Notes under the pieces: model-generated
The model's input: only the letters and a program-made list of their open reading frames with translations
What the model was told of the DNA's origin: nothing
The model's database searches: none
Made by a program: the position numbers and the translations under genes
Shown: positions 44,362 to 59,536 of the stretch, one piece after another
Layout: every line of letters begins with the position of its first letter
Numbering within the stretch: the stretch's first letter is position 1
Assembly (NCBI RefSeq): GCF_009649955.1
Contig: NZ_CP045875.1
Location: forward strand, 1,097,501 to 1,161,500
From: Heliorestis convoluta
GTDB taxonomy: Bacteria > Bacillota > Desulfitobacteriia > Heliobacteriales > Heliobacteriaceae
Direction of reading: 5' to 3'
DNA length: 64,000 nucleotides

Positions 44362-44412
44362 ATAAAAACTGTTTCCTTTTTTTAATAAATAAATGGCTTG
44401 GAGGTTAAGTAA

Positions 44413-45669
44413 TTGAGTATTGTTTCACTAATATATACTTATGATTTAAAAAATAGTGGTGATATGGCGATCAACCTAGGAGCTTTTGATTTACTCCAAG
44501 ATTTGAATTTTAAAATAAAGGCTTTTTCAAAATCCAATGAAAATGATAAAGAATTCCAAAAAAGCAAAGCTTACATAAATGAATATTACCCAAAAATTAA
44601 ATTTTATGGTGGTCCTTTTAAGCTTAATAGAGATGATAATAAAATGGTAACTGTACTGAATCACTTTAATGGGTATCTAAAAACAATAGGAATTAATGAA
44701 GATAATTATTTTATTAATGAGCTAACATCTTCAAACCTGATTATATTTAATGGAGGTAACCTATTCAGAGCGGAATCTTTTGCTGATTATGCACGACTGT
44801 TAGCATTAATGTATCCACTAAAAAAAGCTAGAGAAAAAAAAATTCCTTTTATTATTTTTCCTCAGTCGGCTTCTAATATTAACAGATTAGGTCATAAATT
44901 GTTAAACAAAAATTTAGAACAAGCAAAAAGAGTTTTTACCAGAGAAGACAAAAGTTATCATTATTTAAAAGAAACATTTTCAAACTTGAAAATGGAAAAG
45001 TCTATTGATTTAGCATTTTTTATAAAAGATAACAATAGAGCTAAAGAAAAATATAAAGATAGATATTCTAAATTTTTCAATCTAAGGTCTAAAAAAATAG
45101 CTATAACATTACGCACTCAAGTCGTAGGAGATCTAGGGGAATTAGGTGAAACTAAGAAAAATAAAATAATGAAAGTTATTAAGAAAACAATAGAGCATTA
45201 TCTAGAAATGGAAAACACTCAACTGACATTAATTATACAAACGAGAAAAGATAAAGTAATAACTGAACAGATTTATAATAAGTATAAACATACGTCTAAA
45301 GTTACTTTAATAGAAGAATATGATTGTCTTGTTTTAAGAGAAATATATAGAAATTGTGATTTGCTTATTGGGATGAGATTACACTCAATTATTATGGCAT
45401 TGTCAACCTATACCCCGGCTGTGGGTTTTTTTGACGAAGATTGGGGGCTCAAAAATCCTGGCTTAATGCAAAAATTTAAATTACCGTATAAATTTGTTGA
45501 AGATGAAGTAACGGATTTGGTTAATGAATGCGATTTTGTTATTAATAATAAAAATGAAATAAAGATAAGAATTAAAGATACAGTAGAAAAAGAAACTGAA
45601 AGAATAAAATTTAGCCTGAATGAACTAATCACTACTGAAAACCTAACAGCTGTGTATAAAGCTTTCTAA
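44413..45669 (+). CDS. Polysaccharide pyruvyl transferase family protein
   Basis: A 418-residue protein of the CsaB/WcaK-like fold. It has NSGDMAINLGAFDLL near the N-terminus, IIFNGGNLFRAESF (GGxx motif), IIFPQSASNI, EDKSYHYL (RE/D motif) and a late DLLIGMRLHSIIMAL. Family members add pyruvate ketals to sugars or act as related transferases. SLH domains bind pyruvylated wall polymer, so such an enzyme could in principle serve the S-layer proteins in this window, but its place in the EPS operon favours repeat-unit decoration. TTG at 44413 follows GGAGG. Confidence 0.88.
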   Translation: MSIVSLIYTYDLKNSGDMAINLGAFDLLQDLNFKIKAFSKSNENDKEFQKSKAYINEYYPKIKFYGGPFKLNRDDNKMVTVLNHFNGYLKTIGINEDNYFINELTSSNLIIFNGGNLFRAESFADYARLLALMYPLKKAREKKIPFIIFPQSASNINRLGHKLLNKNLEQAKRVFTREDKSYHYLKETFSNLKMEKSIDLAFFIKDNNRAKEKYKDRYSKFFNLRSKKIAITLRTQVVGDLGELGETKKNKIMKVIKKTIEHYLEMENTQLTLIIQTRKDKVITEQIYNKYKHTSKVTLIEEYDCLVLREIYRNCDLLIGMRLHSIIMALSTYTPAVGFFDEDWGLKNPGLMQKFKLPYKFVEDEVTDLVNECDFVINNKNEIKIRIKDTVEKETERIKFSLNELITTENLTAVYKAF

Positions 45670-45911
45670 GTTGGCTCATAATTGTTTTTGCGAGTTCTCT
45701 TCAAAAAGGAAGTTACTCTCTTAAACAATTTTTTTCGCTGTTAAGTTTTAGACTTTGCAAACTGACATTTGATTTGAATCGAATGTTTATCTTTAGCAGG
45801 TTCAATGATTTTTAAGTGACAACAAAGGTCCACTGAGAGTTAATGTTTTTTATGCAATCAAACTTTTATTAAGTAAATTAAAAGATGCGATTAATAGGAT
45901 GGTGTTTTTCT

Positions 45912-46973
45912 TTGAAAAAAGTACTTATCTTAAGTGCATTTATACCTCATTATAGAGAAAAGCTAATTAAACAATTTGCACAAAAATGTAGTTTGACTGT
46001 AACGAGTCTAGAGCTAGAGAAATTAAATCATATCGCTCCCAAAAGTGAAATTGAAAAATATTGCAATTTAATAAAAACCAAATCACTTAATTTTTTTGAA
46101 AAAATATTAAAAATTTACATAGTGCCGAAAGAAATTAATTTATCAGTTAAACAAGAATGGGACACTGTTTTTGCTTTTTACAGCTTAAGATATCCTCATA
46201 GACTTTTTATTTTTATGTGGTACAAGTCTTTTAAGAAAAAAACAAATTGGGTTTGGGTTGGCCATATATACGGAAGAAACAACATGTTCCTTGTTAAATT
46301 ATTAAGAAGGTTTTTTCTTAATAATAGTAATGGAGTGTTAACTTATACAAATGAGTATGTTGAAAAGCTTAAATCTGATGGGATAAATGTGCCTATATTT
46401 TCATTTAATAATACATATTTAAGTGCAGATGATATAGAAGTATTGCCAATAGAAAAGATAAATAATAAATTAAATATTATATTTGTTGGACGATATCAAA
46501 AAAGAAAGAAAATTGAACGACTGATATATTTAGCAAAAAGACGAGAAGATGTATGTATAAGATTAATAGGTCCAGGGATGGATGTATTGGAAGAAAAAAT
46601 CTTAGAATATGGTTTGTCTGAAAGAATATCAACTTTTGGCTCTAAAATAGGTGACGAACTAAAACCTCATTTTCAGTGGGCGCATATTGTTGCTAATCCA
46701 GGACATGTCGGTTTATTGGTTGTTACTGCAGGTCAATTTGGTAGGCCTATAGTTATTGATAATCAATGTGAGCATGCCCCCGAATATATTATTGCAAAAG
46801 AAACAGGTCAATTTTTCATTAATTGGGAAAACAATGAAGAAGTAGATAAAATAATTGACCTATATAAAAGTTCACCTAGTATAATTACTAATATGGGCAA
46901 AGATTTATCTGAATTGATAAAAAAACAATATACGGTGGAGAATAGTGTCAAGTCCTTTAGAAGATTTATATAA
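45912..46973 (+). CDS. Glycosyltransferase, GT-B type
   Basis: TTG at 45912 (KKVLILSAFIPHYREKLI) is preferred because the sequence before it has no ribosome site for ATG at 45885. About 353 residues. The N-terminal domain is divergent and basic; the donor domain has KLNIIFVGRYQKRKKIERLI and a late WAHIVANPGHVGLLVVTAGQFG, where the usual E-x7-E is altered. It probably adds a sugar in the capsule repeat. The 240-bp gap upstream (45670-45911) holds no gene and may contain a promoter. Confidence 0.8.
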   Translation: MKKVLILSAFIPHYREKLIKQFAQKCSLTVTSLELEKLNHIAPKSEIEKYCNLIKTKSLNFFEKILKIYIVPKEINLSVKQEWDTVFAFYSLRYPHRLFIFMWYKSFKKKTNWVWVGHIYGRNNMFLVKLLRRFFLNNSNGVLTYTNEYVEKLKSDGINVPIFSFNNTYLSADDIEVLPIEKINNKLNIIFVGRYQKRKKIERLIYLAKRREDVCIRLIGPGMDVLEEKILEYGLSERISTFGSKIGDELKPHFQWAHIVANPGHVGLLVVTAGQFGRPIVIDNQCEHAPEYIIAKETGQFFINWENNEEVDKIIDLYKSSPSIITNMGKDLSELIKKQYTVENSVKSFRRFI

Positions 46974-47020
46974 ATCTATACATATATATTTAGTGTATAA
47001 AAATTAAGAGGGTCTTGCCA

Positions 47021-48238
47021 ATGAATTACCTATACAAAATACAAAAAATAAATAAAAATGAATATGAAAATACAATATTATCTATTGCACTTGTAGCACC
47101 ATTTGTAATACTTCCAATTCAGTTTTTTTTATTGACTTTTTTTGAATTATTTCATACTGACATCGCGTCAAAAATTCAAACCTTTTCCAAATTAACAGTA
47201 GGATTAATATATTTATATGCATTACCAATAATTATAAAAAAAAGCAAAATAAAAATCATAGGAATTTATACAATTGCTTTTTTAATTTTTTTGGTTAACT
47301 TTATTCTTTTTCCGGAAAACCATATACATTTAAAAGATTTAATTTTTCCAGTGTTTTTTATGTGCTTACCAGCTTTTATTTTTAGTATATGTATTTATAA
47401 CGTAAATATACTAAAACGAGTGATGTTAAAAGCAAGTCTAATAGTTTTGCTATTAGGTATAATTTTAAGCACTCTAATTTTTATTGGAGGAGCTTCGGTG
47501 GGTCGATATAGTTTGCCTTTATCATATTATATGTTATTACCAACAATAATGTATTTAGATGAATTTTTTGAGAAAATCTCAGTAAAAGCTCTGTTATATG
47601 CCTTAGTTTCGCTTATGATAATACTTTCACTTGGTTCGAGAGGAGCTCTTATATGTTCCGCATTATTTGTCATATTAAAGCTTGCCAGATTTGACTATAA
47701 ATTAAGTTATAGAAAAATGGTTTTTTACTTTAGCTCGATAGGAACGATTGTAGCTTTACTTTTATATTCAAAACAAATTTTAGAATATTTATACATATTC
47801 TTTCTTAATATTGGAATAGAAAGTCGAACAATAAGAGTGCTCTTGAGTGATGATATACCTTTGAGTGGTAGAGATAATCTTTATGAAAATGTTATTAGAG
47901 AAATTTTAATTAATCCTATCTTAGGAATTGGAATAGGTGGAGATAGAGCAGTAAATGGAATATATGTACATAATTTTTTCTTAGAAGTATTAGCAAATTT
48001 TGGCGTGATTATTGGTACTATTCTTATAATTGTATTTTTACTAATAATATTTAAAAACTTAACTATAAAAAACAAAGAAATATACAATATAGTTATCATA
48101 TGGTTAGGCATAGGTTTTTTTCCTTTTATGATGAGCAGCTCATATATAGAAAATATTAAATTCTGGATAATGTTAGGGTTGCTCACTGGATTGTTGAAAT
48201 TTAATAAAAATTACAAGGTATCGTTTTCAAGAAAATAA
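47021..48238 (+). CDS. O-antigen ligase/polymerase-type membrane protein (Wzy-like)
   Basis: ATG at 47021 follows AGAGGG. The 405-residue protein has about ten membrane helices and an extracytoplasmic loop with DIPLSGRDNLYENVIREILINPILGIGIG (about residues 280-305), the characteristic Wzy_C region. It would polymerise repeat units on the outer face of the membrane. One polymerase, one flippase, one initiating transferase and a Wzz protein together complete a Wzx/Wzy pathway in this window. Confidence 0.88.
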   Translation: MNYLYKIQKINKNEYENTILSIALVAPFVILPIQFFLLTFFELFHTDIASKIQTFSKLTVGLIYLYALPIIIKKSKIKIIGIYTIAFLIFLVNFILFPENHIHLKDLIFPVFFMCLPAFIFSICIYNVNILKRVMLKASLIVLLLGIILSTLIFIGGASVGRYSLPLSYYMLLPTIMYLDEFFEKISVKALLYALVSLMIILSLGSRGALICSALFVILKLARFDYKLSYRKMVFYFSSIGTIVALLLYSKQILEYLYIFFLNIGIESRTIRVLLSDDIPLSGRDNLYENVIREILINPILGIGIGGDRAVNGIYVHNFFLEVLANFGVIIGTILIIVFLLIIFKNLTIKNKEIYNIVIIWLGIGFFPFMMSSSYIENIKFWIMLGLLTGLLKFNKNYKVSFSRK

Positions 48239-48267
48239 AAATAACAGCCCTCGCAGAAAGGAAAAAA

Positions 48268-49375
48268 ATGAAAAAAATTGCAATAATTTTACCTTATTTA
48301 AAAGCTGGTGGAACAGAGAGACAAGCTTACTATATTGCTAAGCATCTTCAGTCAAAAGTAGATGTTACGGTTATAACTTTTGAAGATACTGGTTCATTTA
48401 AGAATATGTATAAAAACATTAAGATCCATTGCCTTAATGTCGTATTATGCAAAAAAAACACGTTTGAAATTATGTTAAGACTTATTAAATTATTAAGTAG
48501 AGAAAAATTTGATTTAGTAATTAGTAGAGCATGGAGGTCTAATTTTTTAGTTGCAATATCAAGTTTAATTTTAAAAATACCTTACGTATTATTCTTAAGT
48601 AGTGCAACTAATCAAAATATGAATAAAATAAAGAACAAAGCTCAAGGTTATTTAATATCTAAAGCTAATCTAATTTTTTCTGTATCACAGAAAGCAAAGA
48701 CTAACTGTATAAATACTTACGGTATTGATGGCGACAATATTAAAGTGGTCCAAAACGGGGTTGATATAGATTATATAAAAAAATGTCGAAAGAAGATAAT
48801 AAGACTTTTACTGAAGTTACAAAGGGTAAGTTTGTAATTGTATTCTTAGGAAGACTTGTTCATAGAAAAGGTTTAGACATACTATTAAGAGCTATTTCTA
48901 AAATTAAATCAAATCGGAATGATATAAAAGATATTAAAGTAGTTGTTATTGGAGATGGTGAAAAAGAAAGTGAGTATTTAAAAATGTCTATTGATTTAAA
49001 TATTTCTGATTGGGTAATTTTTTAGGAGAACAGAAGAATCCTTTTAACTATCTAATAAAAGGAGATTTGTTTGTTTTTCCATCTAGAAGCGAAGGTTTTC
49101 CTAATGCACTACTAGAAGCTATGGCCTTAGGTATTCCTTCTATTGCAGCAAACTGTGAAACTGGTCCTGCAGAAGTAATTAACGATTCAATTAATGGTAT
49201 TCTTATAGAGCCTAATCAATCGGAACCTTTAGAATTAGCAATAATAAAACTTTATGAGAATCCAATATTAAGAGCTAGTATTAGTGAAAACGCAATTGAC
49301 ACAATTTATAATAAGCATAATTTAAAAACTAAATTGCTTGAAATAGAAAACGCAATTTCCTCAATTAAGCTATAA
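48268..49375 (+). pseudogene. Glycosyltransferase family 4, two single-base frameshifts
   Basis: Three overlapping frames make one protein. The first (to about 48783) has IILPYLKAGGTERQAYYIAK and VVQNGVDIDYIKK; the second has GKFVIVFLGRLVHRKGLDIL; the third has YLIKGDLFVFPSRSEGFPNALLEAMALG, the donor-binding E-x7-E. Adding one A to the seven-A run at 48777-48783 and one T to the six-T run at 49018-49023 restores a continuous frame of exactly 369 codons plus stop. All family motifs are intact after correction. Recent inactivation, reversible slippage and base-calling error remain possible. Confidence 0.88.
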
Positions 49376-49510
49376 ATTTGGTGGTGTCCAACAAATCGGG
49401 TACGGGTCAGTGACTCTTTGCTATTTAGAACTTGACCGGTAGCTGCTTTTCTTTTTATAGACTGAATGACACTATTATGGCTGTTGTTTACCTATGTATA
49501 TTACGGTTCC

Positions 49511-49826
49511 AGAGAGCCACTTCTCCGGAAAAAATGAGCCACCTTTCCGACGGTTTTTCACGGGTTTTGAGCTACAACACACAAAGCTACTAATACCGCT
49601 AAATGCCGTACCCGTTCGAGACTGGGGGCTTTCAATGGGCCTTAAGGGCTGGCGGAATCCCTTGTCATTTACAGACGGCTAGCTCGGATGGACAATCCAA
49701 GTGGCGATGTTTGTGCGACGTACTATAAATAATGCACTTTGCCGTTAGTGGCTCAGCTTTTGGAAGGGGGGCTCCAAACAATCCATAATAGTTGCGCAGT
49801 TTGGTTCGGGGCTCCAACCTACACTA
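49511..49826 (+). repeat. Left copy of a degenerate inverted repeat
   Basis: Non-coding sequence whose parts match, in reverse complement, the stretch at 52522-52797: GAGCCACTTCTCCGGAAAA, CTAAATGCCGTACCC-TTCGA-ACT, ATTTACAG-CGG, GGACAAT, GTGTTTGTGCGA. It also has repeated GAGCCAC / GGGGCTCC ends like those of IS21-type elements. The rest of the 49376-49921 gap shows no gene. Confidence 0.7.
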
Positions 49827-49921
49827 AATGGCGAGCCATAATTTTTCAGTTAAGTGATATTGCTCCCGAATGCTTATTAATTACAACTGAATATTAAATT
49901 ATAGAGGAAGTGTAAATAGGT

Positions 49922-51157
49922 ATGAATTTAAAAAATGTTAAATCTTTTCTTCAGTATGGTTATTTTATGAATTATGAAAAAGATGATTTACCCCTTGAAT
50001 TTTCGAAAATCGATAAACTAATTTATACAAGCTTGGAAGAAAATGAATTAGTTAATTTAGGCATAGAAAAATTTATTGAAGCAATATCGAAAGATTTCGA
50101 ATACAACTACCAGCATGTTGTACCTTTAAGTGGGGGTTTAGACAGCAGGGCTATTTTAGCCGCGTTATTAGAATTTACTGATGCTAGCAATATATTCACT
50201 TACACATTTGGCACTCCAGGTACACTAGATTATGAAATTGGAGGACTGATAGCAAAAAAAGCTGGAACTAAGCATACTAATTTACCGTTGACTACCCATA
50301 AATATTGCCAGGATGAATTAATTGATATCTCAAACAGGATAAATAATCAAACAATGCTATTTCACCATCCGCCTGTTTGGTTAGTAGACGAATTATTTAG
50401 TAATCATGTGGTCTGGTCAGGCTATATAGGAGATTTAATTGTAGGTGGACATTTACCTACACATCCTGTGACAAACCTAAAAGATGCTAAACTCAAATAT
50501 CTTAATAAATATAAATATGTTAAATCATTGTCGTTATCTAATATTGAAAATGATTTTCTTATAGATTATATAAATTTTAATACTATCGATAAGAAATTAG
50601 TAACTTATGAGGAACAAATATTATTTAACGAAAGGGTTAGGAAATTAACTGCACCGCATGTTTTAATTAAAGGTTATAATTACAAAACACCATTTATTAA
50701 TAACGGGTTTATGGATTTTATGCTTAGTCTAGATAATAGATTTAGACTAGGAAAATATTTATTTATTGAAATGATGTTAAAGGCATTTCCTAAACTTTTT
50801 AGTCAAAAAACGAAAAATAATTATGGGTTACCTTTAAAATCTGGAAATATTAAAATTGAGGTAAAAAAGATTGAAAACAAAATTAAAAGTTTTCTCGGAA
50901 GAAGTCTAAATGGTTTTGTTAACCCTTATATAAATTATTTGGATTTTAGGAATGGTATTCGTGAAAGAGAAGATTTACTTTCAATATTTAGCTCAAATAT
51001 TATGGATTTAAAATCTCGAGGCATTATTGATTGGATAGATATTGAAGATATCTTAAATAGACACTTAAAAAAACAGGGTAATTTTGCGGATGCTCTTATT
51101 GTGTTAACCTCTTTAGAAATACATTTGAAGGCGCAAACAGGTTGGAAAACAAAATGA
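49922..51157 (+). CDS. Asparagine-synthase-like amidotransferase domain protein
   Basis: A 411-residue protein with the PP-loop VVPLSGGLDSRAILAAL (about residues 66-82, SGGLDS) and the downstream VWSGYIGDLIVGGH, as in the C-terminal domain of asparagine synthetases. The N-terminal Cys-dependent glutaminase domain is missing. It may use ammonia from a partner or adenylate a different carboxylate, for example a uronic acid of the polysaccharide, as in WbpG-like proteins. No obvious partner glutaminase is seen in the window. The following flippase overlaps it by 4 bp. It lies between the two inverted repeats. Confidence 0.85.
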   Translation: MNLKNVKSFLQYGYFMNYEKDDLPLEFSKIDKLIYTSLEENELVNLGIEKFIEAISKDFEYNYQHVVPLSGGLDSRAILAALLEFTDASNIFTYTFGTPGTLDYEIGGLIAKKAGTKHTNLPLTTHKYCQDELIDISNRINNQTMLFHHPPVWLVDELFSNHVVWSGYIGDLIVGGHLPTHPVTNLKDAKLKYLNKYKYVKSLSLSNIENDFLIDYINFNTIDKKLVTYEEQILFNERVRKLTAPHVLIKGYNYKTPFINNGFMDFMLSLDNRFRLGKYLFIEMMLKAFPKLFSQKTKNNYGLPLKSGNIKIEVKKIENKIKSFLGRSLNGFVNPYINYLDFRNGIREREDLLSIFSSNIMDLKSRGIIDWIDIEDILNRHLKKQGNFADALIVLTSLEIHLKAQTGWKTK

Positions 51158-52511
51158 TTAACCGTTTAACAAGGGTTTTTAAAGATGAATTAATTAGCAA
51201 GTTATTAAAAAATGCAGGAACATTATTAAGTGGCAACATTATTGCTTCTGTTATGGGGCTACTTACGCTCATAATAACTGCTAGAACCTTGGGACCAGAG
51301 GCTTTTGGAATTCTTGTACTTATTCAAACCTACATATTAGTAGTAGATGGATTAATGAATTTTCAATCTTGGCAAGCCATGATTAAGTTTGGTACTGACT
51401 TTAATGAGAATCAAGAAGTTGACCTTTTCAAAGCAATGATAAAATATGTTTTACTTATTGATGTATTAACAGCAATAATAGCAACAATACTTGCTATTAC
51501 TATGATTAAAGTTATAGGGCCTTTTATAAATATTGATGAAAATGTTTATCATTATGTAATGCTTTTTAGCTTTGTTATACTATTCCACGTTTCTGGAGTA
51601 CCAATTGCAATATTACGTATGTTTAATAAGTTTAAGTTGTTAGCTTTTCAAGCCGTTTTAACATCATTGATAAAACTGATTGGGGTCATAATTCTTTTTA
51701 TAACGGAATCTGAATTACTTGGATTTGTGATTGTGTGGGTTATTACCGATATAGCAGGACACATTTTACTGCAGTATCTTGGTTTTAGAGAACTAAAAAA
51801 ACGAAACTTATCTAATATATTAGATATAAGGATAAATTTACTAAAGGGATACATTAAAAATATTTGGACATTTATAATCACTACAAATTTAAATAGTTCA
51901 ATTAGAATGTCCACGAGACAGTTAGATATATTAATAGTGGGAAGTATATTAGGAAATCATGCTGTAGGTTTATATAAAGTAGCCAAACAATTTTCATCGG
52001 TTTTATCTAGACTAGCAGATCCGTTATATAAAGCTATTTATCCACAGTTAACCAAATTGTATACTCAGAAGAAATTATTAGATTTCAAAAATCTGATAAT
52101 TCAATCTAGTGCCTTAGTTTTCATTCCAGTCATGATTTTATGGGTTGTATTTTTTTGTTTGGTGATTTTATTATTAAACATACAGTAGGAATGGAATTCA
52201 TTGAAGGAAAAACTGTTCTTTTATGGTATATGATGGCGATTGCAATATCAGTTATATCATTTCCGTTACAGCCAGCTATGCTCGCACAAGGACATCCTAA
52301 ATTTTCTCTTTACATACATTTATTAAGCACGATAGTATATTTTGTTTCATTAATCCCTCTAATGAATTACTTTGATATTGCAGGTGCAGGAATAAGTTAT
52401 TTTGTATATTATGCGATCTGGTCACTGCTTATGTTTCTAGTAATTTTTAAGAAGTTAAATAGTTATCAAAAATATGTTAACGAGAGTATGGTTACATACA
52501 AAAGCAATTAA
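51154..52511 (+). pseudogene. Wzx-type polysaccharide flippase, one single-base frameshift
   Basis: ATG at 51154 overlaps the previous stop. The first frame (346 codons) has LLSGNIIASVMGLLTLIITARTLGPEAFG and many membrane helices, typical of the MOP flippase family. It ends early; the second frame continues with LFGDFIIKHTVGMEFIEGKTVLLWYMM and three more helices. One extra T in the seven-T run at 52150-52156 joins them into a 452-residue protein of normal length. It would move lipid-linked repeat units across the membrane and is the only flippase seen in the window. Confidence 0.88.
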
Positions 52512-52521
52512 CTTATTATGA

Positions 52522-52797
52522 AGACTCCGGAGCAAATTAGGCCACTATTTACGGTTTGTTTGAGCTACCTTTCTAGAAGCTTAGGCACTAACGATAATAT
52601 ATACAATATTTAAGCCATATCGCACAAACACCCCACCTGTATTGTCCGTCCGAACCCCGACTGTAAATAGCAGGGACTTCAGACGCAACTTCGAGGCTCA
52701 TTGACAGACAATAGTTTCGAATGGGTACGGCATTTAGGCGCTGTTAGTGGCTTTGTGTGTGTTTTTGTGTCTCATATTTTCAGAGAAGTGCTCACCA
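52522..52797 (-). repeat. Right copy of the degenerate inverted repeat
   Basis: Reverse complement of a diverged version of the repeat at 49511-49826; the best-kept blocks are near 52787 (GAGCACTTCTCTGAAAA on the minus strand) and 52735-52720 (CTAAATGCCGTACCC). Together the two copies flank the asparagine-synthase-like and flippase genes. No protein-coding frame is convincing. Confidence 0.7.
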
Positions 52798-52825
52798 CCA
52801 CTGGAAAAGTATTAGAAAGAGGTAA

Positions 52826-53935
52826 ATGATGAAAATAGCGTACATTTCCACTGCTATAGTTCCGTCTAGGACAGCAAATAGTATTAATGTTATGAAGATG
52901 TGCCAGGCTTTTGCGAAAAATGGACATCAAGTAAAACTATTCCTACCGAAATACAGAAACGCAGATGCGTTACATAACGTTTATAATTATTATGATGTAG
53001 AAAGATGTTTTGAAATAGAATGGATTCCTATAAATAAAAGCCATAAACTCTCAGGTCATTGGTATGGGTTAAAAGCGATGTTGGCTGTAAAGAAATGGAA
53101 GGCTGAGTTAATTTATGGGCGATCTTTATTAACAATATTATTATTTTCAAATAACTCTTCGAAAGCTATATATGAATTACACAAGCCGTTTTCCAACAAA
53201 TTTTTATCTTACTTGTTATATTATTTTACAAAAAACAAACTAAATAAAGTAGTTGTTATCTCGCAAGCATTAAAGAATTATACTATAGAAGAATATAAAA
53301 TTGACGAAGAAAAAATAGTTGTAGCTCATGACGGAGCAGACATACCACATTATACAAAAAAAGCAGATTTGAAAGTTCAAGGAAGTAGATTAAAAGTTGG
53401 GTATGTAGGCCATTTATATCCAGGAAAAAGCATGGAGATTATATCGGAGCTTGTGAAATGCTGTAAGTGGGTTGATTTTCATATAATTGGAGGTTTAGAA
53501 TCAGATATTGATTATTGGAAAGAAAAATTAAAGAATGAGCAAAATATAATTTTTCATGGTTACCTACCACATAAACAAACAGAAGCGTACCGCTTAGCTT
53601 GCGACGTCTTAATTGCTCCATATCAACGCCATGTTTCAGTTTATGGAAATAATAGCATAGATATAGGTAAGTGGATGTCACCTTTGAAACTCTTTGAATA
53701 TATGGCAAGTAAGAAGGCTATATTAACTTCAGATCTTCCTGTTTTAAAGGAAGTATTGGAAAATGACAGAAATGCGTTACTGTGTTCACCTGATGATATA
53801 AATGAATGGATACGAAGTCTAGAAAGGTTAAATTCTGATATAAATCTAAGAAATAGATTAGGTGAAAATGCTAATAAAGATTTTATTAAGAATTATACAT
53901 GGAATGCTAGAGCTAAGAAAATATTAGAGCACTAA
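52826..53935 (+). CDS. Glycosyltransferase family 4 protein
   Basis: A 369-residue protein that starts MKIAYISTAIVPSRTANSINVMKMCQAF. The acceptor half has YELHKPFSNKFLSYLLYYFTK and VVISQALKNYTIEEY; the donor half has LKVGYVGHLYPGKSMEI and SPLKLFEYMASKKAILTSDLPVLKEV with the E-x7-E motif. AGAGG precedes the ATG pair at 52826/52829. It is the last glycosyltransferase of the A+T-rich locus and lies outside the inverted-repeat unit. Confidence 0.9.
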   Translation: MMKIAYISTAIVPSRTANSINVMKMCQAFAKNGHQVKLFLPKYRNADALHNVYNYYDVERCFEIEWIPINKSHKLSGHWYGLKAMLAVKKWKAELIYGRSLLTILLFSNNSSKAIYELHKPFSNKFLSYLLYYFTKNKLNKVVVISQALKNYTIEEYKIDEEKIVVAHDGADIPHYTKKADLKVQGSRLKVGYVGHLYPGKSMEIISELVKCCKWVDFHIIGGLESDIDYWKEKLKNEQNIIFHGYLPHKQTEAYRLACDVLIAPYQRHVSVYGNNSIDIGKWMSPLKLFEYMASKKAILTSDLPVLKEVLENDRNALLCSPDDINEWIRSLERLNSDINLRNRLGENANKDFIKNYTWNARAKKILEH

Positions 53936-54296
53936 GCGTGACTATACTGATTTATTATTAATGTTAGATAAAAATTGTTTATTGTTACGACTATAAAAAT
54001 AGCAAGAATTAAGGGGTTCTTCGCTATTATATGTGGGGTTCAAATAGATGTAGAAATGAAATGGTTATCATTTGAGACTTGTAATATTAAGGCTTGAGAA
54101 TATCAGGACACCAGTGACAAAGTATTAGTGCTGGGGAAACATGACTAACAAAATCTTCCTGAAAAGACACAACGACTATTAAGCAACGCTATCTTCGCGT
54201 AATAGATAAAATATACCCAAATAAAACAAAAGAACATGATGAAAATAACCGTTTTTCAAGAATGTGATCTTAAAAAAAGCAAAGGATGATAACCAA
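53936..54296 (+). other. Intergenic region at the right end of the A+T-rich locus
   Basis: No gene is seen. AATAGCAAGAA and TTCTTCGCTATT form an imperfect hairpin near 53998-54029, which might terminate the operon though it lacks a T-run. The gene at 54297 has its own AAAGGA ribosome site. Confidence 0.4.
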
Positions 54297-55667
54297 ATGT
54301 TCAAAATAGCAGTAGCAGGAACAGGCTACGTCGGCTTAGTCGCCGGCGTTTGCTTCGCCGAAATAGGCCATCAAGTAACCTGCGTAGACATCGACGAAAA
54401 CAAAGTCAATCTTATGAAGTCTGGAATTTCCCCCATTTACGAAACAGGCCTAGAAGAATTGATGCAAAAGAACTACGCCGCTGGAAGGCTTGACTACACC
54501 ACTGATTACAGAGAAGCTTACAGAGATGCTGATGCCATCTTCATCGGCGTCGGTACACCAGAACAACCAGACGGTTCTGCCAATCTTTCCTACATAGCCA
54601 CTGTAGTCAGACAAATCGCTGAAACGATTGAAAAAGACTGCCTCGTCGTTGTCAAATCAACAGTCCCCGTAGGAACAAACGACAAAGTAGAGCAGTTTAT
54701 CCAAGACTTTTTAGTCAATGACGTGAAAGTAGAAGTCGCTTCCAACCCCGAATTCCTAGCCCAGGGCTCAGCTGTCAAAGACACCTTAGAAGCCGCCAGA
54801 ATTATCATCGGCACAGAAAGCAAATGGGCAGAAGAACTCCTGATGAAAATCTATGAACCCTTTAACTTACCCATTGTTTCTGTCAACAGACGCTCCGCAG
54901 AAATGATTAAGTATGCTTCCAACGATTTTCTAGCTCTGAAAATATCCTATATGAACGACATTGCCAACCTTTGCGAACTCGTCGGTGCCGACATTCAAGA
55001 CGTAGCCCAAGGCATGAGCTTTGACGAACGCATCGGAAGCAAATTCTTAAATGCCGGCATCGGCTATGGCGGTTCTTGTTTCCCCAAAGACACCAAAGCC
55101 TTAGAGTACCTAGCCAAACAACATGGCTATGCTTTACGAACCATCAAAGCAGCCATCGATGTAAACGATGACCAAAAAACAATGCTCTATAAAAAAGCCA
55201 GCAAAAGACTGATCACCTTCAACGGCCTCAAAGTCGCCGTCCTCGGCCTAACCTTCAAGCCTGGAACAGACGATTTAAGAGAAGCGCCATCCCTAGAAAA
55301 TGTACCTCTCTTGCTAGAACAAGGCGCCGACATCTACGCCTACGATCCTGTCGGTGCTGATAACTTTGCCAAAGTATATCCAGAAGGCAAAAATGGCAGA
55401 GGAACGATAACCTATGTTGACAATGTAGAAGCAGCTTTAGACAATGCCAATGTCTGCTTCATTTTCACCGAATGGGGAGAAATTAAAGCCGTAGCGCCTG
55501 AAACCTATAAGAAGTGCATGAGAACACCTTTGGTCTTTGACGGTAGAAACATTTACGCCATCGAAGCCATGAAAGAAGCAGGCGTAGAGTATCATTCTAT
55601 AGGAAGAGAAGCTGTCCAAAGAGAAAGCCAAAAGGAGTCGAAGAACCTTGACATACAAGCTTCTTGA
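54297..55667 (+). CDS. ugd: UDP-glucose 6-dehydrogenase
   Basis: ATG at 54297 (MFKIAVAGTGYVGLVAGVCF) follows AAAGGA. The 456-residue enzyme has the NAD motif GTGYVGLVAG and the catalytic NAGIGYGGSCFPKDTKAL with the nucleophilic Cys. It converts UDP-glucose to UDP-glucuronate. The next gene, a UDP-glucuronate 4-epimerase-like SDR, overlaps its end by 20 bp. Base composition is higher in G+C and more C-ending than the preceding locus and like the 17-35 kb region. Confidence 0.96.
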   Translation: MFKIAVAGTGYVGLVAGVCFAEIGHQVTCVDIDENKVNLMKSGISPIYETGLEELMQKNYAAGRLDYTTDYREAYRDADAIFIGVGTPEQPDGSANLSYIATVVRQIAETIEKDCLVVVKSTVPVGTNDKVEQFIQDFLVNDVKVEVASNPEFLAQGSAVKDTLEAARIIIGTESKWAEELLMKIYEPFNLPIVSVNRRSAEMIKYASNDFLALKISYMNDIANLCELVGADIQDVAQGMSFDERIGSKFLNAGIGYGGSCFPKDTKALEYLAKQHGYALRTIKAAIDVNDDQKTMLYKKASKRLITFNGLKVAVLGLTFKPGTDDLREAPSLENVPLLLEQGADIYAYDPVGADNFAKVYPEGKNGRGTITYVDNVEAALDNANVCFIFTEWGEIKAVAPETYKKCMRTPLVFDGRNIYAIEAMKEAGVEYHSIGREAVQRESQKESKNLDIQAS

Positions 55668-56673
55668 TCAGAGCAAAAGATATCTCATCACCGGAGCAGC
55701 AGGGTTCATCGGATATTTCCTATCGAAAAAACTCCTAGAACAGGGCTGCCAAGTAATCGGCCTTGACAATATGAATGATTACTATGATGTAACCCTCAAA
55801 GAAGCACGCTTAGAGCAACTCAAACCCTATAAAAACTTCACCTTCATCAAAGCCGACATTGCTGACAAAGCCATCATCACCCATCTTTTTGAAACGCACA
55901 AACCCCAAATCGTCGTAAACCTAGCCGCCCAAGCCGGTGTCCGCTATTCAATCGAAAATCCCGATACCTACATTCAAAGCAACATCATCGGCTTTTTCAA
56001 CATCTTAGAAGCTTGCCGCCATCACTCCGTAGAACACCTCGTCTACGCCTCCTCCAGCTCTGTCTACGGAGCCAATAAAAAAGTGCCATTTGAAGAGACA
56101 GACTTTGTAGACAACCCCGTATCTCTCTACGCATCAACCAAAAAATCCAATGAACTCATGGCCCATACCTACAGCCACCTCTACAAAATCCCCGCCACAG
56201 GCCTTCGTTTCTTCACCGTCTACGGCCCCTTAGGCCGACCCGACATGGCCTACTTCGGCTTTACCAACAAATACTTTGCCGGAGAGCCCATTCAGATTTT
56301 CAACAACGGCGACTTTGAAAACGACCTCTACCGCGACTTTACTTATATCGATGACATCGTAATCGGCATCGAGCGCTTGATCAGCAAACCACCTACAGAC
56401 TCTGTACCACATAAAGTCTATAACATCGGCAACAACAATCCAGAGAAGCTAATGGTCTTTATCGATACGCTAGAAAGATCCTTAAGCAAAGCCACAGGAC
56501 GGAAGGTAGAATTCGATAAAGCTTTCGAACCCATCAAACCTGGCGATGTACCAGCCACCTACGCTTCAACCGATCTATTACATGAAGCCGTAGGATTTAA
56601 GCCGCAGACTTCTATTGAGGAAGGCCTGCAGAAGTTTGCCGATTGGTATGTGGAGTATTATAGGGTGAAGTAA
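55648..56673 (+). CDS. UDP-glucuronate 4-epimerase-like SDR
   Basis: TTG at 55648 is used as start, ten bases after AAGGAG. The 341-residue protein has YLITGAAGFIGYFLSKKLL (GxxGxxG), AQAGVRYSIENPDTYIQSN, VYASSSSVYG and LYASTKKSNELMAH (YxxxK), plus RFFTVYGPLGRPDMAYF, the hallmarks of CapI/LpsL-type UDP-GlcA epimerases. It makes UDP-galacturonate from the product of the upstream dehydrogenase. Codons match the upstream gene. Confidence 0.93.
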   Translation: MTYKLLDQSKRYLITGAAGFIGYFLSKKLLEQGCQVIGLDNMNDYYDVTLKEARLEQLKPYKNFTFIKADIADKAIITHLFETHKPQIVVNLAAQAGVRYSIENPDTYIQSNIIGFFNILEACRHHSVEHLVYASSSSVYGANKKVPFEETDFVDNPVSLYASTKKSNELMAHTYSHLYKIPATGLRFFTVYGPLGRPDMAYFGFTNKYFAGEPIQIFNNGDFENDLYRDFTYIDDIVIGIERLISKPPTDSVPHKVYNIGNNNPEKLMVFIDTLERSLSKATGRKVEFDKAFEPIKPGDVPATYASTDLLHEAVGFKPQTSIEEGLQKFADWYVEYYRVK

Positions 56674-56773
56674 AGAATTAATTAATTGTTCGGTGAAGCT
56701 AAGAATTCAGGAGTCCTCTAATAAGGGGGCTCCTCAAGATTTTAGGAAGGAACTGAAAGTAAGGAGGATAGGC

Positions 56774-57544: not shown

Positions 57545-59116
57545 TTATTTAGTTACTCGGCAAAGTTCGGGTAGGGTTTCAGACCAGGGAAGTAGCTGAT
57601 CCAGCGCCTGCACATCTTTAGTATCTACATTGGGAAGTATCTCAAAGAGATAGTTTAGATACGTAAAAGGATTCAGGCCATTTTCCTTGGCTGTTTCGAC
57701 AATGCTATATACAATCGCACTAGCTTGGGCACCGCGAGGAGTATTGGAGAATAAGAAATTTTTTCTTCCTAAAACGAAGGATTTTATGGTTCGCTCACTG
57801 CGATTGTTATCTAATTCCAAGCGACCGTCTAACATAAATCCAATGAGTTTATCCCATTGATTCAAACAATAGTTAATGGCTTGACCAAGTGCGCTTTTTG
57901 GGAGTACATTGGGGCTTTGTTTATGAAGCCATGCCAAAAAAGCATCCAGCACTGGCTGGCTGCGTTTTAGTCGCTCTTCATAGCGTTCTTCATTAGTCAA
58001 ATCTTTTAATTGCTGTTCAATGGCAAAGAGTTGGTTGCAATACTCTAGGCCTTCGTCGGCAACGGTCTTGCCGGAACGCTTCTTCTTATCAGGCAACACC
58101 TTAAGAGCCTCGGTGAATTTCCGCCTAGAATGAGCCCAACAGCAAGCTAGGGTAACGCCTTCAACTTTATGATAGCCCGAATAGCCATCGACAGTTAAAA
58201 AGCCCTTGAATCCCGAAAGGAACTGACGGGGATGCTCACCGGCTCTTGTTTGTTGGTAGTCATAAAGCACGATCGGAGGACCTTCGCGACCAGTGCGGTA
58301 CAACCACATATATGAAGTAGTCTGCGCCTCTCGACCTGGTTCATGGAGCACTTGAAGACTCGTCTCGTCAGCGCAAAGTACTTCTTGTAGTAGCAAGTAG
58401 TGATGCATCCGAGTGTAAAGCAAGCTCAGCCATTGATGTGCTCCGTAGAGAATCCAGTTGGCCATATTTTGGCGAGACAAGTTAACGCCAAGGTGCGCAA
58501 AATGCTGTTCCTGACGATAAAGAGGCATGCCATTTACATATTTTTGCGTCATCAAATAAGCCATAGCCGATGGAGAAACCAGGCTTTTTTTAAGCACTGG
58601 CGCAGGCATGGGAGCTGTAACAATGGGCGTATGGATCTCTTCTTGCTCACAACGACGGCAAGAGTAAACATAGCGGACGTGCTTAACAACTTTGACTTGA
58701 GCAGGAATAATCTTAAGCTCTTGCCTTTCCTCAGTGCTCATCTCGTGTAATGAACCACCGCAACAGGAACAAACCTGCTCCTCTTCGGATAGACGATATT
58801 CAATCGTTTCCACAGGCAGGTTTTCTAATGTAACTTCACGGGAACGACGTTTTTTACGGCGCTCGTAAGTGATCTTTTCTATTGTAGGCTCTGCCAAAGG
58901 GGCAAGAGCTTCTGCTTCTACTTCATTGAAGAGAGAGATCTGCTGTTGCTCTGAATCAGTACGTTCGCTAGAAGAGCCAAATTGGCGATGGCGACTTAGT
59001 TTTAACTGTTCCTTAAACCAGTTCAATTCAGCCATCAACTGAGCATTTTGGCTTTCTAGTTGCTCACAGCGTTTTATCAAATCTTCAACATCAGTTGTAT
59101 TCTTTACATTACTCAT
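57545..59116 (-). CDS. tnpC: IS66 transposase (TnpC)
   Basis: A 523-residue DDE transposase. The N-terminal leucine-zipper-like region is followed by HRQFGSSSERTD, a Cys-rich zinc finger (CSCCGG ... YSCRRCEQ), and the catalytic core with ADETSLQVL, TVDGYSGYHKV and LDNNRSERTIKSF supplying D, D and E. The C-terminus has GLNPFTYLNYLFEILPN, the conserved IS66 end. Full length and intact. Confidence 0.97.
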   Translation of the reverse strand: MSNVKNTTDVEDLIKRCEQLESQNAQLMAELNWFKEQLKLSRHRQFGSSSERTDSEQQQISLFNEVEAEALAPLAEPTIEKITYERRKKRRSREVTLENLPVETIEYRLSEEEQVCSCCGGSLHEMSTEERQELKIIPAQVKVVKHVRYVYSCRRCEQEEIHTPIVTAPMPAPVLKKSLVSPSAMAYLMTQKYVNGMPLYRQEQHFAHLGVNLSRQNMANWILYGAHQWLSLLYTRMHHYLLLQEVLCADETSLQVLHEPGREAQTTSYMWLYRTGREGPPIVLYDYQQTRAGEHPRQFLSGFKGFLTVDGYSGYHKVEGVTLACCWAHSRRKFTEALKVLPDKKKRSGKTVADEGLEYCNQLFAIEQQLKDLTNEERYEERLKRSQPVLDAFLAWLHKQSPNVLPKSALGQAINYCLNQWDKLIGFMLDGRLELDNNRSERTIKSFVLGRKNFLFSNTPRGAQASAIVYSIVETAKENGLNPFTYLNYLFEILPNVDTKDVQALDQLLPWSETLPELCRVTK

Positions 59117-59179
59117 ACATTATCAATTCGACAAATTCCACCAATATCCTTTTAAAGGGGTGAAAGATTGGAGGAAGAT

Positions 59180-59536
59180 TTAGATGATAGTACGGGCTGT
59201 TACTTCTTGATGGGCTTGTTTTTGCTCAATGGCTAGGCCATCGAGCAACCATCGTAGCTCGCGACGACTAACCTTTACTGGAGTAGCACGACCTTCAGAT
59301 GGCCATTGAAACTTTCCCCGTTCTAAACGTCTATAATATAGCCAGAAACCGTTTCTATCCCAGTGGAGAATCTTGAGTTTATCACGTTGGCGATTGCAGA
59401 AAACAAAGAGACAAGGCGAGAAAGGGTCTAGCTCAAAGACTTCTTTGACAATTACAGCTAGACCATCAATTGACTTTCGGAGGTCTGTATTGCCCAAAGC
59501 CAAATAAACCCTTTCTACAGCAGCCTCATTTAACAT
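59180..59536 (-). CDS. tnpB: IS66 accessory protein TnpB
   Basis: A 118-residue protein with VYLALGNTDLRKSIDGLAVIV and LFVFCNRQRDKLKILHWDRNGFWLYYRRLE, the IS66 Orf2 signature. Required together with TnpA for IS66 transposition. ATG at 59536 overlaps the tnpA stop. This is not the RNA-guided TnpB of IS200/IS605. Confidence 0.96.
   Translation of the reverse strand: MLNEAAVERVYLALGNTDLRKSIDGLAVIVKEVFELDPFSPCLFVFCNRQRDKLKILHWDRNGFWLYYRRLERGKFQWPSEGRATPVKVSRRELRWLLDGLAIEQKQAHQEVTARTII

What the first reader, a model, noticed from the sequence alone, without database searches (positions are those of the whole stretch)
49511..52797. Two capsule genes boxed by diverged inverted repeats
About 300 bp on the left match the reverse complement of about 275 bp on the right in a series of blocks, and the pair encloses only the asparagine-synthase-like and flippase genes. 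This looks like an old composite element or a cassette exchanged by inverted-repeat recombination within a capsule locus.
Basis: seen in the sequence. Interest (0 to 1): 0.55.

Follow-up and report, generated by a model that had tools for sequence, protein, structure and literature searches.

The report
Transposon ends hiding a shared hairpin
The two inverted repeats are decayed copies of a small gene-less transposon, and each holds a folded, promoter-like hairpin that also sits behind the transposase genes of several unrelated families of jumping genes in Firmicutes, which suggests a shared helper element for moving DNA.

Summary
The repeats are real: 233 bp of window 49577-49809 aligns with the reverse complement of 52527-52760 (score 145; best of 500 shuffles 31). 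They are decayed copies of a ~300 bp gene-less element with IS21-type ends (GAGCCAC arrays, spaced 20-23 bp). They are probably separate insertions: 75% identical to each other in the core, but up to 86% (left) and 82% (right) to copies elsewhere. A composite unit is not excluded, since pieces of the element also bracket genes at two other loci.

Each copy contains a ~125 nt hairpin with strong covariation and no Rfam match. Relatives occur in 23 of 398 genomes of the phylum. In 17 of 37 tip-pattern loci scanned (57 distinct) a neighbouring ORF is a transposase, always with its 3' end towards the hairpin: IS3, IS256, IS110, ISL3 and IS30 types mainly; IS21 elsewhere. Of 59 tips, 33 have a good -10 box on one strand, 2 on the other.

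I propose a fold-back promoter that primes second-strand synthesis during copy-out transposition. Identity is well supported; this role is inferred (about 0.3).

The parts
49495..49809 (+). Copy A of the IS21-ended gene-less element (left arm); right terminus not recognised
   Evidence: left end by eye
49514..49520 (+). GAGCCAC motif of copy A
   Evidence: L001 1635-1641
49536..49542 (+). GAGCCAC motif of copy A
   Evidence: L001 1657-1663
49748..49754 (-). GAGCCAC motif of copy A, other end
   Evidence: L001 1869-1875
49587..49711 (+). Hairpin core of copy A (86.3 bits to model R2, which contains this sequence)
49922..51157 (+). Asparagine-synthase-domain gene between the arms
51142..52511 (+). 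Flippase gene between the arms, frameshifted into ORFs 51142-52188 and 52140-52511
52519..52815 (-). Copy B of the element (right arm), opposite orientation
   Evidence: ends by eye
52627..52750 (-). Hairpin core of copy B (85.3 bits to model R2, which contains this sequence)
49383..49412 (+). Remnant of an IS3-type end just left of copy A
   Evidence: query 4984-5013 matches 5 places in G001 and 1 in G004; likeness to the end of L099 by eye

Best explanation
Each arm is an insertion of a short gene-less element with IS21-type ends (outward-facing GAGCCAC repeats 20-23 bp apart), moved in trans by an IS21 transposase elsewhere. Two copies landed in opposite orientation in a capsule locus that already holds other IS scraps, so the box around the two genes is most likely incidental. 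Between the ends lies a conserved hairpin of about 125 nt (outer stem, interrupted middle stem, two small apical hairpins; outside heliobacteria the tip reads GTCAAGGG...CCCTTGAC). Relatives of this hairpin are a recurrent part of Bacillota insertion sequences of several families, just behind the transposase gene. In many non-heliobacterial copies the 3' arm carries a -35 box in the duplex tip and a -10 box 16-18 nt later, mostly unpaired in the fold. Most likely role (inferred): when the IS is single-stranded during copy-out transposition, RNA polymerase reads the fold as a promoter and makes a primer for the second strand, as Frpo of the F plasmid and single-strand origins of rolling-circle plasmids do. 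Odds by step: arms are decayed IS21-ended elements 0.9; box incidental 0.7; hairpin is a conserved module shared by IS families 0.9; it acts as a promoter 0.5; it primes second-strand synthesis 0.3. Shown: homology, ends, covariation, distribution, promoter motifs. Inferred: mobilisation in trans, transcription, priming.
For: Arms real; further copies in the own genome, G001 and G004. Same arrays around istA/istB sequence. Hairpin, 16 sequences, 42 pairs: 91.5% of cells paired, 20 pairs and 76 cells with changes on both sides, covariation score 0.352 against 0.179 shuffled and at most 0.071 slid. By model R2: 7 of 9 genomes of the family, 23 of 398 of the phylum, 19 of them outside the family, best E there 2.6e-13. 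Neighbours: 40 ORFs from 37 of 57 distinct tip loci scanned; 17 loci have a transposase family, 16 over the curated cut-off, 17 of 17 with the 3' end facing the hairpin; IstB in L167 and IS110 genes in L162, L164, L165. 15 of the 17 are in families that PMC9333248 lists as copy-out/paste-in (passages read; IS3 and IS30 assigned from domains by recall). Control: of 103 DDE_Tnp_1 hits in 7 of 13 hairpin-bearing genomes, 1 lies within 500 bp of a hairpin. Promoter: -10 with at least 5 of 6 matches at spacing 16-18 in 33 of 59 tips on the forward strand, 2 of 59 on the reverse, 1.7% of shuffled arms. Folded as DNA, 29 elements pair 165 of 174 bases of the -35 and 70 of 174 of the -10.
Against: In one search the number of further pair types is not above shuffling (42 against 41.1), and the structure was drawn from the same sequences. 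Heliobacterial IS3-borne hairpins have a poor -10 (GACCCT and the like, 2 of 6). Oscillospiraceae-type tips have a TACAAT-like box only about 7 nt after TTGACC, so TTGAC is no -35 there, and the two scanned (L201, L220) had no transposase neighbour. 20 of 37 scanned loci gave no transposase. Hairpin sense relative to the gene differs: IS3 same sense in 5 of 6, IS110 opposite in 3 of 3, IS256 1 same and 3 opposite. PMC7780238 (passages) says most IS families use copy-out/paste-in, which weakens the family argument. One DDE_Tnp_1 element in G371 has a hairpin nearby. The model does not match pTA1060 (8,000 of 8,737 bases). The IS21 gene copies seen (G056 broken, G004 at a contig end) showed no hairpin. 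No target duplications, transcription or transposition data.
Confidence: 0.55

Rival explanations
1. The two arms and the genes are an old composite or cargo unit: IS21-type ends in opposite orientation once moved the two capsule genes together, and the arms have since diverged.
For: Opposite orientation and tight enclosure. Pieces of the element also bracket a 491 aa ORF in L009 (inverted, one piece of 43-48 bp) and 783 bp with a 221 aa ORF sit in place of 85 bp of the element in L065, so the element can hold or flank genes.
Against: Arms are closer to other copies than to each other. Both arms are near-complete elements. No second site with the same unit was found among 8 relatives.
Confidence: 0.2
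2. The hairpin is an RNA element: a 3' untranslated structure of transposase mRNAs that stops transcription, stabilises the message or regulates the transposase.
For: In 17 of 17 labelled loci it lies behind the 3' end of the gene, and it covaries like an RNA.
Against: It lies in either sense relative to the gene, although the promoter-bearing strand is fixed; no Rfam family matches; promoter boxes on one strand are not expected of a terminator.
Confidence: 0.25
3. The hairpin is a small mobile fold-back element of its own that hitch-hikes on insertion sequences and survives only where it does not break the transposase gene.
For: Same hairpin in unrelated IS families; some tips have no transposase nearby (20 of 37 scanned loci).
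Against: Sense is mostly fixed within IS3 and IS110; IS3 relatives down to 63% and 52% transposase identity keep it at the same place, if weakly matched; no excision or insertion site was defined.
Confidence: 0.2
4. It is an ordinary double-stranded promoter inside a palindrome, firing outward or against the transposase gene.
For: Good -10 on one strand in 33 of 59 tips.
Against: Gives no reason for the long conserved fold with apical hairpins or for copies that keep the fold and lose the -10.
Confidence: 0.15

Closest known systems
IS21-family insertion sequences and gene-less derivatives (MITEs)
   Same: GAGCCAC repeat arrays at both ends, spaced 20-23 bp; the same arrays border istA/istB sequence
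   Different: no genes; carries a hairpin not seen in the IS21 gene copies examined
Frpo and rolling-circle single-strand origins (sso)
   Same: fold-back DNA with a paired -35 and a mostly open -10; PMC4595007 (passages) says F and many Gram-positive plasmids have an sso whose fold RNA polymerase recognises as a promoter
   Different: sits in insertion sequences; no model match to pTA1060; function untested
IS110/IS1111 seekRNA region
   Same: a non-coding structured part of an insertion sequence
   Different: the hairpin is also beside IS3, IS21, IS30, IS256 and ISL3 genes; PMC11187229 was seen only in search listings

Membership tests
IS21-derived gene-less element | terminal repeat arrays shared with istA/istB elements | tested here: met
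IS21-derived gene-less element | target-site duplication | not tested
   termini of the window copies placed by eye only
composite transposon | flanking copies more alike than unrelated copies | tested here: not met
   75% to each other; up to 86% and 82% to others (old divergence could hide it)
composite transposon | same unit at another site | tested here: inconclusive
   not found in 8 relatives by DNA; genes bracketed by pieces of the element at two other loci
known RNA family | Rfam 15 match to the hairpin | tested here: not met
   one match each, E 0.089 and 0.29, both far under the gathering score
single-strand origin / single-strand DNA promoter | fold with -35 paired and -10 mostly open | tested here: met
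   29 elements chosen for their best -10; heliobacterial IS3 copies lack a good -10
single-strand origin / single-strand DNA promoter | sequence relation to a known rolling-circle plasmid origin | tested here: not met
   no match in pTA1060, the only plasmid tried
single-strand origin / single-strand DNA promoter | RNA polymerase primes DNA synthesis from it | not testable with these tools
   needs an in vitro assay
integron attC | RYYYAAC / GTTRRRY boxes at the hairpin foot (recalled) | tested here: not met
   foot sequences read by eye do not fit

The most novel reading that the evidence does not exclude
Copy-out/paste-in insertion sequences of at least six families in Bacillota (IS3, IS21, IS30, IS110, IS256, ISL3) share a homologous single-strand origin: a fold-back promoter behind the transposase gene that primes the second strand of the excised element. 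It would be a cis element for the replication step and explain why unrelated families carry the same hairpin.
Probability: 0.3. Interest if true: 0.88.

Novelty: new variant of a known kind. Interest (0 to 1): 0.6.

Why it matters
How the figure-eight intermediate of copy-out transposition becomes a double-stranded circle is left to host replication in the paper read (PMC7780238, passages). A conserved hairpin beside genes of several such families would make that step testable by deletion and point changes, and would give annotators a handle on the non-coding parts of many insertion sequences. It also shows that repeats boxing capsule genes need not be cassette borders.

Tried and rejected
Composite transposon: lowered, not excluded. 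Rfam: nothing. Plasmid or phage origin: no blastn match of one 671-base query in plasmids or phages, and 2 stretches with the tip pattern in viral contigs. Integron attC: foot boxes do not fit, by eye. First model R1 used an RNAalifold structure that I judged partly wrong in the inner part; replaced by R2 with a structure drawn from the single folds. Both window copies are in the alignments of R1 and R2, so their own scores are by construction.

Rows dropped or not seen: six of 61 tip loci have non-Bacillota titles (L190, L212, L230, L231, L234, L243); I took them for probable chance, although R2 matches three of them (L230 E 5.6e-7, L190, L231). They were left out of the 59-tip count; with them it is 64 tips, forward 33, reverse 2. 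The tips are not independent (related copies). Four loci repeat one element. Pfam was run for 37 of 57 distinct tip loci; I chose ORFs after looking at them, and 20 loci were not scanned, several of which had small ORFs or lay at contig ends. In L187 a second IS3-like ORF (by eye) turns its 5' end to the hairpin and was not scanned. Of 35 loci put into the DNA-fold test, 5 had no tip by the pattern used and L208 had a poor -10; the strand with the best -10 was taken there. R2 in 398 genomes scored only 8 candidates a genome outside the handles search, so hairpins were surely missed, which also weakens the DDE_Tnp_1 control; its 103 hits come from few families in many copies. Papers: nine searches, of which bear on hairpins in insertion sequences, listed none that I recognised as describing this one; the library lacks most subscription journals.

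Full report
The observation. The left stretch and the reverse complement of the right stretch align over 233 bp with score 145; 500 dinucleotide-preserving shuffles reached 31 at most and the direct orientation 23. The inverted repeats are real. They enclose an Asn_synthase-domain gene and a frameshifted flippase.

What the arms are. The own genome (one contig of 3,218,981 bases; recalled, not tested: this fits Heliorestis convoluta) holds more copies of the repeat. Of 61 genomes searched, own included, 6 have matches. The better kept copies share a plan: GAGCCAC motifs 20-23 bp apart at both ends, termini like TGNATAYTNCGG (by eye), and a hairpin core between them. In G056 such arrays border an istA fragment (Mu-transpos_C_2) and istB, broken by another element; in G004 an IstB gene lies next to one. 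So the arms are IS21-ended and gene-less. One copy sits between the same flanks in the own genome and in congener G001 (L011, L062; by eye), the own copy with an internal deletion.

Composite or not. In the core alignment copies A and B are 75% identical; A is up to 86% identical to others (G001C8), B up to 82% (C1348, G001C4), and they do not group in the tree, whose support is low. The G001 copy L061 matches A at 85% over 281 bp and B at 77% over 229 bp. This speaks for separate insertions. Against it: in L009 a short piece and a full copy in opposite orientation bracket a 491 aa ORF, and in G001 L065 one element has 783 bp with a 221 aa ORF in place of 85 bp. A DNA search with window 44400-56700 in 8 relatives found the flank to the right (G001 93%, G004 69%), arm copies, an IS3-like end and a 65% piece of the glycosyltransferase right of the cassette, but not the cassette genes.

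The hairpin. Model R1 found the core in 7 of 82 genomes of the class, all in the own family, there also behind other transposases: IS3-type OrfB (L078, L090, L076) and a Mu-type transposase with an AAA ATPase (L088). Sixteen cores with a 42-pair structure gave 91.5% paired cells, 20 pairs with two-sided changes and covariation 0.352, against 0.179 shuffled and at most 0.071 slid; the count of further pair types was no higher than shuffled (42 against 41.1). Copy A of the window is decayed: z -1.36 and -0.11 on its two strands.

Distribution. Model R2 hits 7 of 9 genomes of the family and 23 of 398 of the phylum, 19 of them outside the family, down to E 2.6e-13 there and with up to 8 matches a genome. 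A tip pattern found 61 stretches in the set of 84,980 species, 55 with Bacillota titles, and 2 in viral contigs. R2 matches 53 of these 63 loci at E up to 0.1, which is not independent, as they were picked by the tip.

Neighbours. I scanned 40 ORFs from 37 of the 57 distinct tip loci: 17 loci have a transposase family, 16 over the curated cut-off; in 17 of 17 the 3' end of the gene faces the hairpin. By domains: IS3-like 6, IS256 4, IS110 3, ISL3 1, IS30-like 1, IS240-type DDE 1, weak rve_3 1. Of the 40 ORFs, 8 turn their 5' end to the hairpin and none of these matched a transposase. IstB (L167) and three more IS110 genes were confirmed. PMC9333248 (passages) lists IS1, IS3, IS21, IS30, IS256, IS110, ISLre2 and ISL3 as copy-out/paste-in; PMC7780238 (passages) says most IS families use this way, which makes the overlap less special. 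Control: 13 hairpin-bearing genomes were searched for DDE_Tnp_1; 7 had 103 hits, of which 1 lies within 500 bp and 4 within 1,500 bp of the 38 hairpin places known there. IS3 relatives: 8 of 8 loci in G004, G005 and G008 carry it; 5 of 6 in G032 (63-64% identity) and 1 of 2 in G033 match weakly; G064, the other G033 locus and a truncated own copy do not.

Promoter. In 59 tips the forward strand has a -10 of at least 5 of 6 in 33 and of at least 4 in 44; the reverse strand in 2 and 11; shuffled arms give 1.7% and 13%. Forward is set by the tip, not by the -10. In 29 elements folded as DNA, chosen for their best -10, 165 of 174 bases of the -35 and 70 of 174 of the -10 are paired. Against: poor -10 in heliobacterial IS3 copies and another spacing in Oscillospiraceae-type tips. 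IS21-type copies have a -35-like box and GACAAT at spacing 17 in 5 of 8; copy B has 15, and G001C8 and F1883 do not fit.

Reading. PMC4595007 (passages) states that F and many Gram-positive rolling-circle plasmids have a single-strand origin whose fold RNA polymerase recognises as a promoter to make a primer. In copy-out transposition DNA replication turns the figure-eight into a double-strand circle (PMC7780238). A hairpin with duplex -35, mostly open -10 and one-strand polarity beside such transposases fits a primer site. This is inference: no transcription or transposition data, and no sequence relation to the one plasmid tried.

Verdict. The box itself is most likely ordinary: two old IS21-ended elements. 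What they carry has no Rfam match and no description that I recognised in the paper searches.

Noticed in passing
window 48268-49375 and 51142-52511: A glycosyltransferase gene split into three ORFs and a flippase split into two, with breaks near homopolymer runs (by eye): pseudogenes, phase-variable tracts or sequencing errors.
   Followed up: no
window 57545-59536: An IS66-type element (523 aa and 118 aa ORFs, named by eye) close to the capsule locus.
   Followed up: no
L065 2516-3476 (G001): One IS21-ended element in which 783 bp with a 221 aa zinc-ribbon-like ORF (by eye) replace 85 bp of the hairpin part; the ORF starts right at the arm.
   Followed up: partly
L009 1850-4561 (own genome): A short piece, a full copy in opposite orientation and a further partial copy around a 491 aa ORF: a second place where the element brackets a gene.
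   Followed up: partly
L064 2400-2490 (G001): Group II intron 3' part (domain V-like, by eye) about 90 bp from a copy of the element.
   Followed up: no
L199, L201, L213, L217, L220, L221, L236, L242: Oscillospiraceae or Clostridiales tips with a TG-TACAAT-like box about 7 nt after CCCTTGAC(C/G); the two scanned (L201, L220) had no Pfam match in the neighbour: perhaps a separate class.
   Followed up: partly
L262 and L267 (G064, G033): IS3 relatives with a long hairpin of different sequence (by eye) at the same place behind the transposase gene.
   Followed up: no
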